42,694 bases of DNA from contig NZ_AADV02000012.1 in NCBI RefSeq assembly GCF_000167195.1, forward strand, positions 1-42,694, written 5' to 3'. The position numbers and the translations under genes were made by a program. The DNA comes from Crocosphaera watsonii WH 8501 (lineage in GTDB: Bacteria; Cyanobacteriota; Cyanobacteriia; Cyanobacteriales; Microcystaceae). This document shows positions 1,929 through 37,197 of this stretch, in pieces. The number at the start of each line of letters is the position of its first letter. Position 1 is the first letter of the stretch. The notes under the pieces were generated by a model. The model made no database searches and was not told the origin of the DNA. It saw only the letters and a program-made list of their open reading frames with translations.

Positions 1929-2240
1929 GGGGGCGTGGCGGAATGGTAGACGCTACGGACTTAAGTAAAATTGAGCCTTGTTAGAGAAATCTTACAAGTG
2001 TAAGCTCTCAAATTCAGGGAAACCTACGTCTATTCTAATAGATAAGGCAATCCTGAGCCAAGCTAAATCTGGAAGGGTTTAGAAGGTGCAGAGACTCGAC
2101 GGGAGCTACCCTAACAGATTAAGCTGAGGGTAAAGGGAGAGTCCAATTCTCAAAGCTCAGATGATGCAGTAGCGAAAGCTGCAAGAGAATGAAAATCCGT
2201 TGATCGCGAGATCGTGAGAGTTCAAGTCTCTCCGCCCCCA
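1929..2240 (+). tRNA. trnL-UAA: tRNA-Leu(UAA) gene interrupted by a group I intron
   Basis: The 5' exon is 1929-1962 (34 nt, ending at the first anticodon base U34) and the 3' exon is 2192-2240 (49 nt). GGGGGCG (1929-1935) pairs with CGCCCCC (2233-2239), A2240 is the discriminator, and CCA is not encoded. The anticodon stem ACGGA pairs with TCCGT. The long variable arm and the T arm around GAGAGTTCAAGTCTCTC are typical for a class II tRNA. Splicing after U34 restores the anticodon UAA. This is the classic cyanobacterial and chloroplast location for such an intron. Confidence 0.96.
1963..2191 (+). mobile_element. Group I intron in tRNA-Leu(UAA)
   Basis: A 229-nt insertion splits the anticodon after U34 and ends with G2191 directly before the 3' exon, as group I introns do. 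Core elements are visible: TCAGGGAAACCT near 2015-2026 (P/Q region) and the AAGGTGCAGAGACTCGACGG-type R region at about 2081-2102. There is no homing-endonuclease ORF. Known relatives self-splice and are mostly inherited vertically in cyanobacteria and plastids. Confidence 0.93.
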
Positions 2241-10288: not shown

Positions 10289-10319
10289 ACCCTCTTGTGT
10301 CACGTCACAGAATCTTGAA

Positions 10320-10555
10320 TAATAATTCAACAACCCTAACTGAACGAAGCTACGCTGCGTTGAAGTTAGGGATTGCCAAACCCAAAGTTAGCAACGTTAA
10401 GTGTTGAATAGCCCTTTTTCGCCTAATCTTGGCACAAACTTCCAAATACTTCTCTAGTTTGGATTATCTTTAAGTCTTTTTGGGAAGACGGGCGTAATGG
10501 CAAGACATCTTAGATTAGGTGGGCAAAGAGACCACAACTTTACTCTTGAGGATTA
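10320..10555 (+). ncRNA. Probable omega-RNA of IsrB
   Basis: This non-coding segment immediately upstream of isrB has several consistent helices: ATTCAACA 10325-10332 with TGTTGAAT 10402-10409; inside it CCCTAACT 10334-10341 with AGTTAGGG 10364-10371 and AACG/CGTT; CAAACT 10435-10440 with AGTTTG 10456-10461; GTCTT 10474-10478 with AAGAC 10485-10489; and a long-range helix CCTAATCT 10422-10429 with AGATTAGG 10512-10519. Known IscB/IsrB guide RNAs are encoded in exactly this place, with the guide at the 5' end, which here would be near or before 10320. The limits are approximate. Confidence 0.62.
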
Positions 10556-10560
10556 TCTCC

Positions 10561-11700
10561 ATGTTAAGAGTCCCTGTTTTATCACCAGACGGAACCCCAT
10601 TAATGCCGACCAAAGCAAGTCGAGTTAGACGATGGATATCTGACGGGAAAGCTGTCGGAAAATTCAACGATTTAGGGCAGTTTTATGTTCAACTTTTAGT
10701 CAAATCATCTGACACCAAAACTCAGTCTGTTTCTGTAGGAATAGATCCAGGTAAGCATTTTTCTGGTATTGGTGTTCAATCCTCAAAATATACTTTATTT
10801 ACAGCACATCTTGAACTACCTTTTAAGAAAGTTCGAGAACGGATGAATAATCGTCGGATGATGCGACGAGGAAGAAGAGGGAGACGCATTAATCGTAAAT
10901 TACCTTTTCATCTAAGAGCGCATCGTCAAAAGCGATTTTCAAACCGAAAACAAAGTAAGTTACCACCGTCAATTAAAGCTAATCGACAACTTGAGTTAAG
11001 AGTTATTCAACAACTGTGCAAAGTATTTCCTATTACTGATATTTACTTTGAGTACGTCAAAGCAGATGTTGATTTAACATCTGGACGGAAAGGAGCTAAG
11101 TCAGGGAAAGGATTTTCAGCCGTTATGGTAGGACAGAAATGGATGCTCAAACAATTAGAAAAGTTGGGCAATGTTCATACTATTTACGGTTGGCAAACTT
11201 CTAATCTTAGAAAACATCTTAGGTTAGATAAATCTAAAAATAAGTCTAAACAAACAGCTAGTTCCCATGCTGTAGATGGTGTTACCTTGGCTTGTTATCA
11301 ATTTCTTGAGTATAAAGCCCATTGTTCGGGTAATAATCATGGACATATTTGGCAAGGCAATGTAACTATTACTGCTTGTCAATTCATGGTAATTAAACGT
11401 CCTCCTATTAGTCGTCGTCAACTTCACTTAATGTTACCAATTAAAGGAGGTAAAAGACGAAAGTACGGAGGGACAGTTACTCGTCATAACATCAGAAAAG
11501 GAGATTTTGTTAAAGCTATTAAGGCTGGGAAAGTCTTTTATGGCTGGTGTTCTGGTGATACGGCTAAACAAGTCTCAGTTTCCAATTTTGATTGGAAAAG
11601 ACTAGGACAATTTACTGCCTCGAAAGTAGTGTTGCTCCAACGCTCTACGGGGTTAATTTGTAAACAGGAAGCGGACTTCGTTGGAGCAACTGTTTGTTAG
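10561..11700 (+). CDS. isrB: RNA-guided nickase IsrB (RRXRR/RuvC protein, no HNH)
   Basis: 379 residues from ATG 10561; an upstream in-frame start at 10519 would run into the RNA region. It opens with the PLMP-type domain (VLSPDGTPLMPTKASRVRRW), then RuvC-I GIDPGKHFSGIG (D62), an arginine-rich bridge helix (about 96-130, RRMMRRGRRGRRINRK), RuvC-II IYFEYVKADVD (E164), RuvC-III SSHAVDGVTLA (H236, D239), and a C-terminal domain with KYGGTV and RKGDFVKA. Only about 70 residues separate RuvC-II and III and hold no HNH motif, which distinguishes IsrB from IscB. All RuvC acidic residues are kept, so it may be active. Confidence 0.88.
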   Translation: MLRVPVLSPDGTPLMPTKASRVRRWISDGKAVGKFNDLGQFYVQLLVKSSDTKTQSVSVGIDPGKHFSGIGVQSSKYTLFTAHLELPFKKVRERMNNRRMMRRGRRGRRINRKLPFHLRAHRQKRFSNRKQSKLPPSIKANRQLELRVIQQLCKVFPITDIYFEYVKADVDLTSGRKGAKSGKGFSAVMVGQKWMLKQLEKLGNVHTIYGWQTSNLRKHLRLDKSKNKSKQTASSHAVDGVTLACYQFLEYKAHCSGNNHGHIWQGNVTITACQFMVIKRPPISRRQLHLMLPIKGGKRRKYGGTVTRHNIRKGDFVKAIKAGKVFYGWCSGDTAKQVSVSNFDWKRLGQFTASKVVLLQRSTGLICKQEADFVGATVC

Positions 11701-11716
11701 TTGATGCTCGTTTCCT

Positions 11717-11740
11717 CCCCGACGTTTTCAGACGACGGGG
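11717..11740 (+). repeat. Right-end hairpin of the IsrB element
   Basis: CCCCG pairs with CGGGG, with an inner CG/CG pair across an A-A mismatch and a TTTTCAGA loop. It lies 17 nt after the isrB stop. Imperfect subterminal hairpins with a mismatched base are what Y1 transposases bind in IS200/IS605 elements. It could also act as a terminator, but the following TTTCC is a poor U-tract. Confidence 0.55.
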
Positions 11741-11774
11741 TTTCCACTCGCATATTTCACGATGACGATTTGTC

Positions 11775-13385
11775 ATGAGGGGTGCTGTGTCTCTTAATCA
11801 AAAAAAGTCCCGTTCTTTAGTGAGTATTGCTGGCCTTGTAGCTGTGGCTACCCTGGTTAGTAAAGTGTTTGGTTTAGTCCGTGAACAGGCGATCGCAGCA
11901 GCTTTCGGGGTAGGCTCCGTCTATAATGCTTACGCCTACGCTTACGTTATCCCTGGTTTTTTATTAATTTTACTGGGGGGTATCAATGGACCGTTTCATA
12001 GTGCCTTAATTAGTGTTTTAGAGAAACGAGATAAGTCAGAAGCTGCTCCCTTAGTGGAAACGGTAACTACCTTAGTCAGTCTGGTTTTATTGTTGGTTAC
12101 GGTGGTTTTAATCGTCTTTGCGGATACTTTTATCTCTATGTTGGCCCCGGGGTTGGGAGGTGAGGTTAAAGCGATCGCTGTTCAACAATTACAAATTATG
12201 GCCCCATTAGCTTTGTTGGCAGGGCTGGTTGGCATCGGTTTTGGAACCCTCAACGCTGCGGATCAATATCTCTTACCCAGTATTAGCCCCTTGTTTTCTA
12301 GTGTGGCCATTGTTATTGGTGTTGTGACCTTAATGTGGCAGTTAGGAACTAATCTGAATAACCCCGAAAATTGGTATTTAGGGGCCATGGTTTTAGCCGG
12401 AGGAACTTTAGTAGGAGGGGTTTTACAGTGGTTAGCGCAACTATGGGCCCAATGGCAAGCAGGAATGGGTAAACTAAGGTTACGCTTTAATTGGCGTATT
12501 CCTGGGGTGATGGATGTGATGAAGGTGATGGGCCCGGCTACTCTATCATCAGGGATGTTACAGATTAATACTTATACTGACTTCTTTTTTGCCTCGTTTA
12601 TCCCCAATGCAGCGGCTGCTATGCGTTATGCAAATTTTATTTATTTAACGCCTTTGGGTATTATTTCTAATATGATTTTAGTGCCGTTTATGCCGGTTTT
12701 TTCTCGTTTAACTGCCCCTGAAAATTGGCCGGAATTAAAGGTAAGAATTCGTCAAGGGTTATTATTAACGGCTTTAACTATGTTACCGTTAACGGCTATT
12801 TTTATAGCCTTAGCCCCTGTTATTATTCGGGTTGTTTATCAACGAGGTGCTTTTAAATCTGCTGATGCTGATCTGGTTATTCCTGTTTTAATGGCTTATG
12901 GAATCGGAATGTTTTTCTATTTGGCTAGGGATGTTTTAGTTAGGGTTTTTTATGCTTTAGGGGATGGAGAAACACCCTTTAGAATTAGTATTTTTAATAT
13001 TTTTCTCAATGGTTTTTTAGATTTTCTGTTATATAAACCTTTTCAAACTCCTGGTTTAGTGTTTGCAACTATTGGGGTTAATATAGTTTCTCTGGTTATT
13101 TTCTTAGGCATTCTCAATAATCGTTTAGGGGGTTTACCTTTACAAGAATGGGGTAAGGCGTTATTGGCTTTAACAGGAATTAGTTTTTTAGCTGGTGTAG
13201 GTAGTTATGGTGTTAGTTGGGGTTGGGAACAGTTTTATCCTGATAATAATTTCTTCTTACAATTGTTACGATTACTGTTATCTGTGGTTACTGCTTTTAC
13301 TATTTTTATAATCTTATCCATTCAATTAAAATTACCAGAAGTTTATATGTTACTGTCTCGAATTAAAGGAAAATTGAAAAAATAG
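11775..13385 (+). CDS. murJ: Lipid II flippase MurJ (MviN)
   Basis: 536 residues with about 14 hydrophobic segments. The N-terminus (LVSIAGLVAVATLVSKVFGLVREQAIAAAFG) is the MurJ signature with the conserved Arg, and the MATE-like repeat GNxxxAxxxA-type motifs recur. It flips undecaprenyl-linked peptidoglycan precursor across the inner membrane and is normally essential. The start at ATG 11775 is 34 nt past the IsrB hairpin, so its promoter must lie within or upstream of the IsrB element, or the element reads through into it. Confidence 0.95.
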   Translation: MRGAVSLNQKKSRSLVSIAGLVAVATLVSKVFGLVREQAIAAAFGVGSVYNAYAYAYVIPGFLLILLGGINGPFHSALISVLEKRDKSEAAPLVETVTTLVSLVLLLVTVVLIVFADTFISMLAPGLGGEVKAIAVQQLQIMAPLALLAGLVGIGFGTLNAADQYLLPSISPLFSSVAIVIGVVTLMWQLGTNLNNPENWYLGAMVLAGGTLVGGVLQWLAQLWAQWQAGMGKLRLRFNWRIPGVMDVMKVMGPATLSSGMLQINTYTDFFFASFIPNAAAAMRYANFIYLTPLGIISNMILVPFMPVFSRLTAPENWPELKVRIRQGLLLTALTMLPLTAIFIALAPVIIRVVYQRGAFKSADADLVIPVLMAYGIGMFFYLARDVLVRVFYALGDGETPFRISIFNIFLNGFLDFLLYKPFQTPGLVFATIGVNIVSLVIFLGILNNRLGGLPLQEWGKALLALTGISFLAGVGSYGVSWGWEQFYPDNNFFLQLLRLLLSVVTAFTIFIILSIQLKLPEVYMLLSRIKGKLKK

Positions 13386-34710: not shown

Positions 34711-37197
34711 GTGCGATTCGTTGGGCTAGAAATCTTGTACTAAAGTATAAGCGTGTAGCCCGTTCAGAACCTAGAAATCTGAATAACTGTTGGTTTGTTG
34801 GCTAAAGGAGCCAAACTCGGAATCAAAGGAGTAATCCTAAGAGTAACGACATAACCCTCCGTTTTGGACATAGTAAACCCAGGATGGAAGCAGGGTTAAA
34901 AGGGGAACCCGTCATGAAACAGCATGGCAAGACGTTCCTCTAGTTAATCGGTCATGGTTAAACATTACGTTGAATCCTCGACTTGAACCCTCAAAACAAC
35001 TAAGTAGCCAAAACTGTTTGATAGGCTGCGTTCAAAAAGAACAAGGTGAAAAGTGGAAAGCTAGGTAACTCATCCACACAGATTCCTAAAATTAACCTGG
35101 GGGAAAGATGAAACCTAAAATCGATACACCCAAACCAACGGAACGAATTAACCCCATGATTGCTCTTATCACTGGTCGAGTAGATAAGTAGTGACAAACT
35201 TAAGCGCAAGGGTCATGGGGGTGAGAAGCAATTAAGTTGCTAATGCCTACTTGCAATAAGTATGGATATGCTGACGTATTGCTGGTTAATTAGAAGAAAT
35301 AGTCTCAATTAGAGGTAAATATGTCGAATGCGAGTATAATCAAGACTACGCCAGAATGGAACACAATCAACTGGGCAAAAGTCCAGAGAAAAGTGTTTAA
35401 GCTTCAAAAAAAGAATATTTCAAGCTGTTAAATCAGGTAATAAAGTTAAAGCTAAACAGCTTCAAAAGTTACTGTTAAAGTCACATTATGCAAAGCTCTT
35501 AGCCATACGCAAAGTGACCCAAGACAACCAAGGCAAGAAAACTGCTGGAGTTGACGGGAAAAAGGCACTACGCCCTAACCAAAGGTTAAAGTTAGTTAAA
35601 GAACTAGCATTTAAGGGTTACAAAGCAAAGGCACTCCGACGAGTTTGGATTCCCAAACCTGGAAGAGATGAAAAACGTGGCTTGGGGATACCCACCATAA
35701 AAGATAGAGTAATGCAAGCCTTGGTTAAATCAGCCTTAGAGCCATAATGGGAAGCTCAATTTGAAGGAACCAGTTATGGTTTTCGTCCAGGCAGAAGCGC
35801 ACACGACGCAATCGGCAGAATATTCTCGACAATCAATCAATGTCCCAAATATGTTTTAGATGCTGATATCGCCAAATGCTTCGACAAGATTAATCATGAT
35901 TACCTACTGTCCAAAGTAGAGTGTCCACACAACATCAAAAGAATCATCAAACAATGGTTGGAATGTGGTGTTATGGACAAAGGCATATTTGAGGAAACCG
36001 ATTCAGGTACACCTCAAGGTGGTGTTATAAGCCCTCTATTGGCTAACATAGCACTACACGGAATGATAAAAGATTTAGAAAAACACTTCCCCAATTCAAA
36101 GAAAAGGGAGGGTGGCTCTATAAATCGAAGGTTTAAACCCAGATTCATCCGTTACGCCGATGATTTTGTAATTCTCCATGAGGATTACGACGTTATTCTA
36201 CAATGTAAAAAACTGATTGCGCAATGGTTAGAAAAGGTTGGACTGGAACTAAAACAAGAAAAGACCTCCATCAGACACACCTTAAAAAGTATCAAACAGG
36301 ATGGCAAAATCGTTGACCCTGGCTTTGATTTTCTTGGATTCAATATCAGGTCATACCCCGTTGGGAAACACCACTCAGGTAATACAGGTGGTAAACACCC
36401 CAGAATCATTGGATTCAAGACAATAATCAAACCAAGCAAGAAGAAAATACTAGCTCATCACGAGGCAATCAAAGAGGTTATTAAAGCCAACAAGAAAGCC
36501 CCACAAGCAGCATTAATCGCAAGATTAAACCCCATAATTAGAGGATGGTGCAATTACTACCGAACTGTAGCCAGTAAGGAAACGTTCTCATCCGAAGCCC
36601 ACATATTATGGAATATGCTTAGAGCATGGACAGTCAGCAGGAAAAAGAAAAAGACAACGTTGAATAAAGCTCTCAGAAAATATTTCTCAAACGGAAAACA
36701 CGGACTCTGGACGTTCCAAACCAAGGATTGTGTCCTTTACCACCATGCCGAAACGGAAATAAGGAGACATCAACTGGTTAAGCTTGAAGCATAGCCCTAT
36801 GACGGAAACTGGACATACTGGAGCATACATACGAGGTGCATATACTGGGACACCAAATAGGGTTTCAAAACTCTTAAAGAAACAAAAAGGTATATGTCCT
36901 CAATGCAAGCAACACTTTACGCCTGAAGACTTGATAGAAGTTGACCACATTATCCCTAAATCGAAAGGTGGAAAGGATACCTACAACAACCTTCAAGCCC
37001 TGCATCGTCACTGTCATGATGTCAAAAGCAAAAATGACTACCTCTATGATTGGCTAGATAATGGCTATAAATGGAAAGACGATGTATTAACAGTACCCAT
37101 GACAAGGGACTAATTGCCGAAAGCCGTGTGAGGTGAAAGTCTCATGCACGGTTTGGAATGGGAGGAGAGGTAAGCGATTACCTTTTCGACCCCTAAT
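34711..37197 (+). mobile_element. Group II intron with degraded reverse transcriptase
   Basis: The 5' end GTGCGATT matches the GUGYG consensus. Domain V is recognisable at about 37123-37158 (AGCCGTG, GAAAG loop, CACGGTTT), domain VI follows (AGGTAA-GCGA-TTACCT) with a candidate branch-point A near 37189, so the 3' end is near 37197, give or take a few bases. A possible EBS1 (AGATAAG, 35182-35188) can pair with the last 7 nt of the 5' exon (CTTATTT). It is inserted about 20 nt upstream of the YciI gene. Confidence 0.87.
35321..37113 (+). pseudogene. Group II intron-encoded RT-maturase-HNH protein, multiply broken
   Basis: The start MSNASIIKTTPEWNTINWAK (ATG 35321) is followed by a frameshift in a run of seven A's (about 35408-35414), a stop TAA at 35745-35747 (EP-stop-WEAQFEG), a stop TAG at 36792-36794 (before PYDGNW) and a 4-bp duplication (ATACATAC, about 36827) that shifts the frame. 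Recognisable parts are the RT core (KPGRDEKRGLGIPTIKDRVM, YGFRPGRSAHDAI, GTPQGGVISPLLANI, RYADDFVIL), the maturase region, and an HNH nuclease (CPQCKQHFT, EVDHIIPKSKGG, LHRHCHD) at 36784-37113. It cannot make an active protein. Confidence 0.9.

What the first reader, a model, noticed from the sequence alone, without database searches (positions are those of the whole stretch)
10300..11745. A complete-looking IsrB RNA-guided nickase locus in a cyanobacterial chromosome
The 379-residue protein has every RuvC catalytic residue (D62, E164, H236/D239), a PLMP-type N-terminus and an arginine-rich bridge helix, but no HNH domain between RuvC-II and III. That is the definition of IsrB, the smallest Cas9-lineage relative. 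It is preceded by a structured non-coding segment and followed by an IS200/IS605-type hairpin. Few IsrB systems have been characterised, and this one comes from a distinct cyanobacterial background.
Basis: partly seen in the sequence, partly recalled or inferred. Interest (0 to 1): 0.85.

Follow-up and report, generated by a model that had tools for sequence, protein, structure and literature searches.

The report
IsrB guided-nickase element upstream of murJ
This is an intact copy of a known small RNA-guided DNA-nicking mobile element (IsrB) in a Crocosphaera-type cyanobacterium, and comparing its relatives shows that such elements, and shortened copies reduced to the guide RNA, often sit exactly at the start codons of host genes.

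Summary
Window 10561-11700 encodes a 379-residue IsrB; DtIsrB (8dmb) is its best solved match by sequence and by predicted fold. The four RuvC residues and both TAM-reading residues are invariant in 24 of 24 aligned relatives, and no HNH domain is present. An omega RNA (10326 to about 10540) precedes it; 35 of 48 predicted pairs show compensatory changes. Empty sites in sister genomes place the element at 10326-11761, inserted without duplication before ATGA (11762-11765) in the murJ leader; the predicted guide is 10306-10325. Three copies lie in this genome.

The biochemistry is not new: Hirano 2022 nicked DNA with IsrB from Crocosphaera watsonii and Dolichospermum. This is a new member of a known kind.

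The surprise lies outside the window. Of 50 cyanobacterial IsrB insertions with both ends mapped, 46 are non-genic, and 27 of those abut a downstream ORF's start codon, the TAM ATGA being ATG+A (59%, against 29% of control non-genic ATGA sites). Elements reduced to the omega RNA or its 3' part, in Crocosphaera-type genomes, do so in 14 of 16 assessable cases (query aside). At dxs this genome has lost the end of the native leader and keeps an element's 3' end instead. The window's own copy is an exception.

The parts
10306..10325 (+). Predicted 20-nt guide: genomic flank directly 5' of the omega RNA scaffold, equal to the pre-insertion target next to ATGA. The 20-nt length is taken from DtIsrB.
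   Evidence: Empty sites in sister genomes, e.g. L065 ..GTCACGGAATCTTGAATAATAA|ATGACAATTTG. Guide length from Hirano 2022. Inferred, not shown.
10326..10540 (+). omega RNA scaffold (HEARO-like); its 5' end is the element's left end
   Evidence: HEARO RF02033 full-length 10326-10538, 32.6 bits, below the gathering score of 83; consensus fold with 35 of 48 pairs compensated in 20 sequences; DNA fold of 10326-10412 z -5.07.
10561..11700 (+). isrB gene: PLMP domain, RuvC-I (D62), arginine-rich bridge helix, RuvC-II (E164), RuvC-III (H236, D239), C-terminal TAM-interacting domain (R347, Q350)
11717..11740 (+). Right-end hairpin (CCCCG..CGGGG), followed by 21 nt up to the element end
   Evidence: DNA fold of 11690-11765, z -1.91; present in the copies.
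10326..11761 (+). Whole element, 1436 bp, no TnpA ORF inside, no target-site duplication
   Evidence: Homology to the two other copies in the genome (83-84%) runs from 10324/10325 to 11765, ATGA included; copies' ends; empty sites in sister genomes; ORF list.
11762..11765 (+). TAM ATGA (target-adjacent motif), part of the pre-insertion site
   Evidence: ATGA directly follows the right end in 10 of 10 Crocosphaera-type copies printed; position checked; DtIsrB TAM NTGA (Hirano 2022).
11787..13385 (+). murJ (lipid II flippase) downstream, likely starting at GTG 11787 (ATG 11775 is also in frame)
   Evidence: PF03023 MurJ E 1.7e-112; among the sister genomes the leader varies up to about GTG-TCT. 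The choice of start is inferred.

Best explanation
A complete, probably functional IsrB element of the IS200/IS605 kind. The transcript across its left end gives an omega RNA whose first ~20 nt are copied from the flank (the old target). IsrB with this RNA should bind the same 20 nt followed by NTGA, which exists only in an allele that lacks the element, and nick the non-target strand. The resident copy is protected because the element separates guide sequence and TAM. Nicking the empty allele would favour recopying the element by recombination after excision or in a sister replicon. Mobility needs a TnpA supplied in trans. Shown here: protein family and fold, intact catalytic and TAM residues, covarying RNA, exact ends, TAM, empty site, several copies. 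Inferred: transcription, nicking, recopying, TnpA in trans.
For: Protein. RNA. Ends, TAM and empty site. Copies: 3 in the genome; the two others have open frames at 86 and 87% identity; 30 of 59 genomes, own included, have a match; weak IscB-like hits are counted there. Biochemistry of CwIsrB and DtIsrB: Hirano 2022, sections 6-8 read.
Against: No activity or RNA data. The HEARO score lies under Rfam's gathering score. The ends gave only 9-13 nt matches in the 11 Y1_Tnp loci of the genome, and ORFs from five of those loci had no match in 51 related IsrB loci, so no transposase partner was found. A promoter-like site overlaps the guide (10297-10326; such sites are at chance level there); if real it would start transcription inside the scaffold and miss the guide.
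Confidence: 0.9

Rival explanations
1. An IscB (with a cryptic or displaced HNH domain) rather than an IsrB.
For: The NCBIfam guided_IscB model matches, best over residues 6-171.
Against: Score below cut-off; 71 residues between RuvC-II and RuvC-III; the tree separates it from four IscB-like proteins whose sequences show HNH-type motifs, by eye; best fold match is DtIsrB.
Confidence: 0.02
2. A resident, no longer mobile copy kept because the murJ leader now depends on it (leader capture), or exapted as a regulator of murJ.
For: The insertion separates a conserved sequence (GTCAC.GAATCTTGAATAAT) from murJ; at dxs in the same genome only an element's 3' part remains, as leader.
Against: The frame, the catalytic residues and the RNA are intact, and copies elsewhere in the genus sit at other sites, which fits a still active family.
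Confidence: 0.12
3. The excess of start codons among the related insertions reflects survival only: insertions elsewhere decay or kill, while those at start codons persist because the downstream gene comes to need the element's right end as leader.
For: Reduced elements show it more strongly (15 of 17, the query included) than full IsrB copies (27 of 46 non-genic), p 0.02.
Against: Insertion between leader and start codon should do more harm than insertion in plain intergenic DNA, yet it is the commoner class; one start codon carries elements of two types in three genomes, so at least two insertions.
Confidence: 0.5

Closest known systems
CwIsrB (Crocosphaera watsonii) and DsIsrB (Dolichospermum sp.), Hirano et al. 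2022, PMC9581776 (section 8 read)
   Same: Same protein family; CwIsrB is probably from the same genus; NTG-type TAM. Their omega RNAs are of the authors' group B2; the group of the window RNA was not tested.
DtIsrB (Desulfovirgula thermocuniculi; PDB 8dmb)
   Same: Domain order, RuvC residues, TAM-reading Arg and Gln (R323/Q326, here R347/Q350), NTGA TAM, fold.
   Different: 32% identity in the structural alignment; the window protein has extra residues after RuvC-II, between RuvC-III and the C-terminal domain, and at the C-terminus; DtIsrB is from a thermophile.
HEARO RNA (Rfam RF02033)
   Same: All 211 model positions align, from the left end to just before the gene; in the related locus L039 it reaches 94.7 bits.
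   Different: The window copy scores 32.6 bits, below the gathering score of 83; of 20 related loci scanned only L039 passed.
IscB
   Same: PLMP, RuvC, bridge helix, omega RNA on the 5' side, TAM on the 3' side.
   Different: IscB has HNH between RuvC-II and RuvC-III; absent here.

Membership tests
IsrB | RuvC-like nuclease with intact catalytic residues in three motifs | tested here: met
   D62, E164, H236, D239 invariant in 24 of 24 and aligned with DtIsrB.
IsrB | N-terminal PLMP domain | tested here: met
   PLMP at residues 13-16; M15 and P16 in 24 of 24, P13 and L14 in 22 of 24; PF14239 E 6.6e-52.
IsrB | Arginine-rich bridge helix interrupting RuvC | tested here: met
   13 Arg in residues 94-125; helix 88-109 in the model, though pLDDT is about 55-65 over much of it.
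IsrB | No HNH domain between RuvC-II and RuvC-III | tested here: met
   71 residues between E164 and H236; no HNH family; model shows a loop at 169-184 (pLDDT under 50) and helix 192-200.
IsrB | C-terminal TAM-interacting domain with Arg/Gln reading TGA | tested here: met
   R347 and Q350 invariant in 24 of 24, aligned to DtIsrB R323/Q326.
IsrB | omega RNA encoded 5' of the gene | tested here: met
   35 of 48 predicted pairs compensated over 20 sequences; HEARO full length, sub-threshold. Transcription not tested.
IsrB | Insertion beside an NTGA target-adjacent motif with the guide in the other flank | tested here: met
   Empty sites; ends of the copies.
IsrB | RNA-guided nicking of DNA | not testable with these tools
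   Needs an in vitro assay.
IS200/IS605 element | Mobilised by a Y1 TnpA transposase acting on hairpin ends | tested here: inconclusive
   Hairpins can form at both ends; no TnpA ORF inside; 11 Y1_Tnp matches in the genome, none with recognisably similar ends.
IscB | HNH domain | tested here: not met
HEARO RNA RF02033 | Score at or above the gathering score | tested here: not met
   32.6 vs 83 bits, although all 211 model positions align.

The most novel reading that the evidence does not exclude
Cyanobacterial IsrB elements and their omega-RNA-only derivatives are start-codon-docking elements. Their TAM ATGA coincides with the start codon ATG+A, the RNA guide is the displaced native 5' leader of a host gene, and the element's right end becomes that gene's new leader. 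This makes insertion tolerable, ties the element's 3' end to the expression of (often housekeeping) genes, and lets a nuclease-free omega-RNA remnant persist. The bias would come from target choice, from leader capture, or from both.
Probability: 0.5. Interest if true: 0.75.

Novelty: new member of a known kind. Interest (0 to 1): 0.5.

Why it matters
The copy itself adds an intact IsrB with a known empty site, predicted guide and TAM, useful for testing what a nickase (rather than a double-strand cutter) does for a transposon. The comparative result matters more: if OMEGA elements whose TAM is ATGA often settle on start codons and lend genes a new leader, it would explain how nuclease-free guide-RNA remnants persist beside housekeeping genes such as dxs, and it links TAM choice to host tolerance. 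That is testable with existing genomes and simple transposition assays.

Tried and rejected
TnpA partner: short-BLAST of both ends against the 11 Y1_Tnp loci of the genome gave only 9-13 nt matches; tblastn of ORFs from five of those loci against 51 related IsrB loci gave none. HEARO at gathering threshold: not reported for the window; of 20 related loci only L039 passed. Terminator/promoter scan: at chance level. Papers of Weinberg 2009, Kapitonov 2016, Altae-Tran 2021 and Meers 2023 were sought by id and are not held, so a remark there on ATGA sites and start codons may exist; I recall from Weinberg 2009 that HEARO lies next to ATGA or GTGA. Searches for such a statement; I saw only their listings and noticed none. 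Papers seen: PMC9581776 (abstract, outline, sections 6-8, passages), PMC9755519 (passages); all others listings only.

Limits of the start-codon count. The right-end pattern demands ATGA, so TAM identity is circular; independent support is the end of homology in 10 Crocosphaera-type copies and the empty sites. Of 13 loci where the pattern failed, by eye: L039, L041, L115 ATGA; L034 GTGA; L040, L042 perhaps TTGA; 7 nothing recognisable. Gene models are plain ORFs; controls are the window + 20 x 20 kb from 12 other genomes and 20 x 20 kb of the own genome. The genic test differs slightly: cases use any covering ORF of 100 codons or more, controls a greedy set of ORFs. Sites in one genome are not fully independent. 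For the 10 Crocosphaera-type IsrB copies alone the excess is not significant (5 of 10 vs 26%, p 0.09). The reduced-element search started from an element chosen because it sat at a start codon (L144 = L162), so that one must be left out; L170 and L175 lack a left end, so the upstream-frame test could not be applied to them; L175 is a right half beside a truncated TnpB-like ORF.

Full report
What is there. The window (a contig of a draft genome of the Crocosphaera/Cyanothece kind; judged from titles of the nearest relatives) carries at 10561-11700 a 379-residue ORF. Pfam gives RRXRR PF14239 at 6.6e-52 and nothing else. The NCBIfam IscB model scores 116 bits, below its cut-off of 175. The best solved relative is DtIsrB, chain 8dmb_P, E 9e-48 over residues 2-371. 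A 24-row alignment (A4) shows D62, E164, H236, D239, the bridge-helix arginines tested and the TAM-reading pair R347/Q350 (DtIsrB R323/Q326) invariant in 24 of 24. The AlphaFold2 model (mean pLDDT 77.9, pTM 0.76) matches 8dmb_P best (Foldseek E 8.7e-30, TM 0.67/0.77), then IscB structures. Stretches 124-131, 169-184 and 284-303 are of low confidence. In a 32-row tree the window protein groups with the IsrBs and DtIsrB, apart from four IscB-like proteins (100/100), with the program's warning that DtIsrB and two short RRXRR proteins are long branches.

The RNA. HEARO (RF02033) aligns over its full length at 10326-10538 but at 32.6 bits, below the gathering score of 83. An alignment of 20 left ends (17 from IsrB loci, 3 from ORF-less elements) folds with 48 pairs, 35 of which have compensatory changes.

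The ends and the empty site. Homology to the two other copies in the genome (83-84%) runs from 10324/10325 to 11765. The murJ start was found in 7 of 8 sister genomes. Five have an empty site (L062, L064-L067): the flank ..GAATCTTGAATAAT or a variant, two bases (AA or GA), then ATGACAATTTG or a variant; L062 reads TTGA in place of ATGA. L063 reads the same flank and ATGA but carries a TnpB-type ORF just 3' of it. L068 looks empty by eye. So the element is 10326-11761, the TAM is ATGA at 11762-11765, there is no duplication, and the predicted guide is the 20 nt before 10326.

How it probably works. [quoted passage not shown] With the element in place, guide target and TAM are parted, so self-nicking is prevented; the empty allele is the target. 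The recopying step is inferred from what is known for TnpB and IscB (recalled, not read).

Is it new? The same paper assayed IsrB from Crocosphaera watsonii and Dolichospermum. Related proteins are patchy: 30 of 59 genomes (own included) have some match, IscB-like hits included, and 22 of 292 spread over the phylum (own included) at 1e-70. In the phage collection 9 records match, 8 of them over 80% of the query; 7 of these 8 are records of five Microcystis-type phages. Nine IMG/VR loci match and 14 plasmid records. The locus is a new member of a known kind.

The unexpected pattern. 88 loci had an IsrB match and 78 distinct downstream flanks. 65 of the 78 gave a right end with the pattern; 58 sites were kept and 20 dropped (13 without right end, 2 of another type, 5 repeats of a site). 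In 33 of these 58 the ATG of the TAM opens an ORF of 60 codons or more, or one of at least 40 that runs off the locus. 50 of the 58 also gave a left end: 27 start-like, 19 other intergenic, 3 inside another ORF, 1 in-frame internal. Controls: 3728 ATGA sites in the window plus 20 x 20 kb of 12 other genomes gave 295 start-like and 710 other non-genic (29%); the own genome gave 259 and 750 (26%). Fisher: 27/46 vs 295/1005, OR 3.4, p 5e-5; non-genic 46/50 vs 1005/3728, p 9e-22. Then 13 further loci, the rows not yet in the set, were tested: 7 gave a right end and 7 of 7 are start-like, but only 4 are new unique sites; 3 had no recognised gene and 3 no right end. The sites with a right end come from one unnamed genus (g7, probably Microcystis, since its IsrB groups with that of a Microcystis phage).

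Elements reduced to the RNA. A 318-nt ORF-less element lies at a start codon in genome G002 (L144 1183-1500; HEARO 39 bits). A genus search with it gave 21 matches, itself included. With the pattern and enough sequence, 13 of 13 are start-like, the query included. By hand, L173 (amidase family, gatA-like) and L176 (dxs) are too; L180 and L182 are not; L163 and L178 lie at contig ends; L167 has no right end; L179 is a right-end fragment followed by GTAA. That makes 15 of 17, or 14 of 16 without the query (p 5e-7), 14 of 17 with L179 as a miss (p 2e-6), and 12 of 14 with one site per gene (p 5e-6), all against the own-genome control. Downstream families include ATP synthase A chain, Mg-chelatase-like, CN_hydrolase, 2Fe-2S ferredoxin-like, Phd/YefM and DUF3110; two of ten had no hit. 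At dxs (PF13292) five genomes have the native leader, G002 has the element exactly between that leader (..gatggtaaaaagcaaaccatt, as in L235) and ATGA, and the genome of this window has lost the end of the native leader and keeps about 108 nt of an element's 3' part in its place. At a subtilase gene (PF00082) G001 has a full IsrB element, G002 the ORF-less element of another type and G005 a right half beside a truncated TnpB-like ORF, all ending at the same start codon, while five others are empty.

Against over-reading: the window's own copy is not at a start codon (its TAM opens 11 codons; the likely murJ start, GTG 11787, is 25 nt on). At a second start-codon site (L008) seven sister genomes were all empty. 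Ten Crocosphaera-type IsrB copies alone are not significant. ORF-based gene models are crude, and survival alone could make the bias. Published remarks on this may exist in papers not held here.

Noticed in passing
L069 3682-3801 (Microcystis phage Ma-LMM01), L070-L072; viral contigs L241, L243-L247: Upstream of phage-borne isrB the 5' handle of the omega RNA (TGTCACTAACCC..) recurs: 4 to 5 copies 28-38 nt apart, the RNA's own included, in the four phage records scanned, and 2 or more in 6 of 9 viral-contig loci by pattern (L240, L242 and L248 show fewer). Reminiscent of a guide array, but the spacers look alike between phages.
   Followed up: partly
L069-L073, position 5158 (gp170 in Ma-LMM01): In five Microcystis-type phage records the IsrB element's ATGA is the annotated start codon of the next gene, between uracil-DNA glycosylase-side and clamp-loader genes.
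   Followed up: partly
L063 88-1490 (genome G005): A TnpB-type ORF (411 aa) lies just 3' of the same murJ leader site that holds the IsrB element in the window.
   Followed up: partly
L232 / G000:C323 near 295394-295501: In the window's own genome the dxs leader is a fragment of an omega-RNA element's 3' end.
   Followed up: yes
L077 (G000:C273:10474-10536): Isolated remnant of an IsrB right end, 63 bp, 83% identical.
   Followed up: no
window 1930-2240: Group I intron (1953-2157) inside what reads by eye as tRNA-Leu(UAA); ARAGORN found no tRNA in the window. Ordinary for cyanobacteria (recalled).
   Followed up: partly
window 35958-37197: Group II intron end (RF00029 at 37119-37197) downstream of an ORF (35958-36794) that may be its maturase; not searched.
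   Followed up: no
window 11631-11690: Perfect 12-bp inverted repeat GTTGCTCCAACG..CGTTGGAGCAAC inside the 3' end of isrB; the last stretch of L001 and L002 looks more alike than the rest in the alignment (not measured).
   Followed up: no
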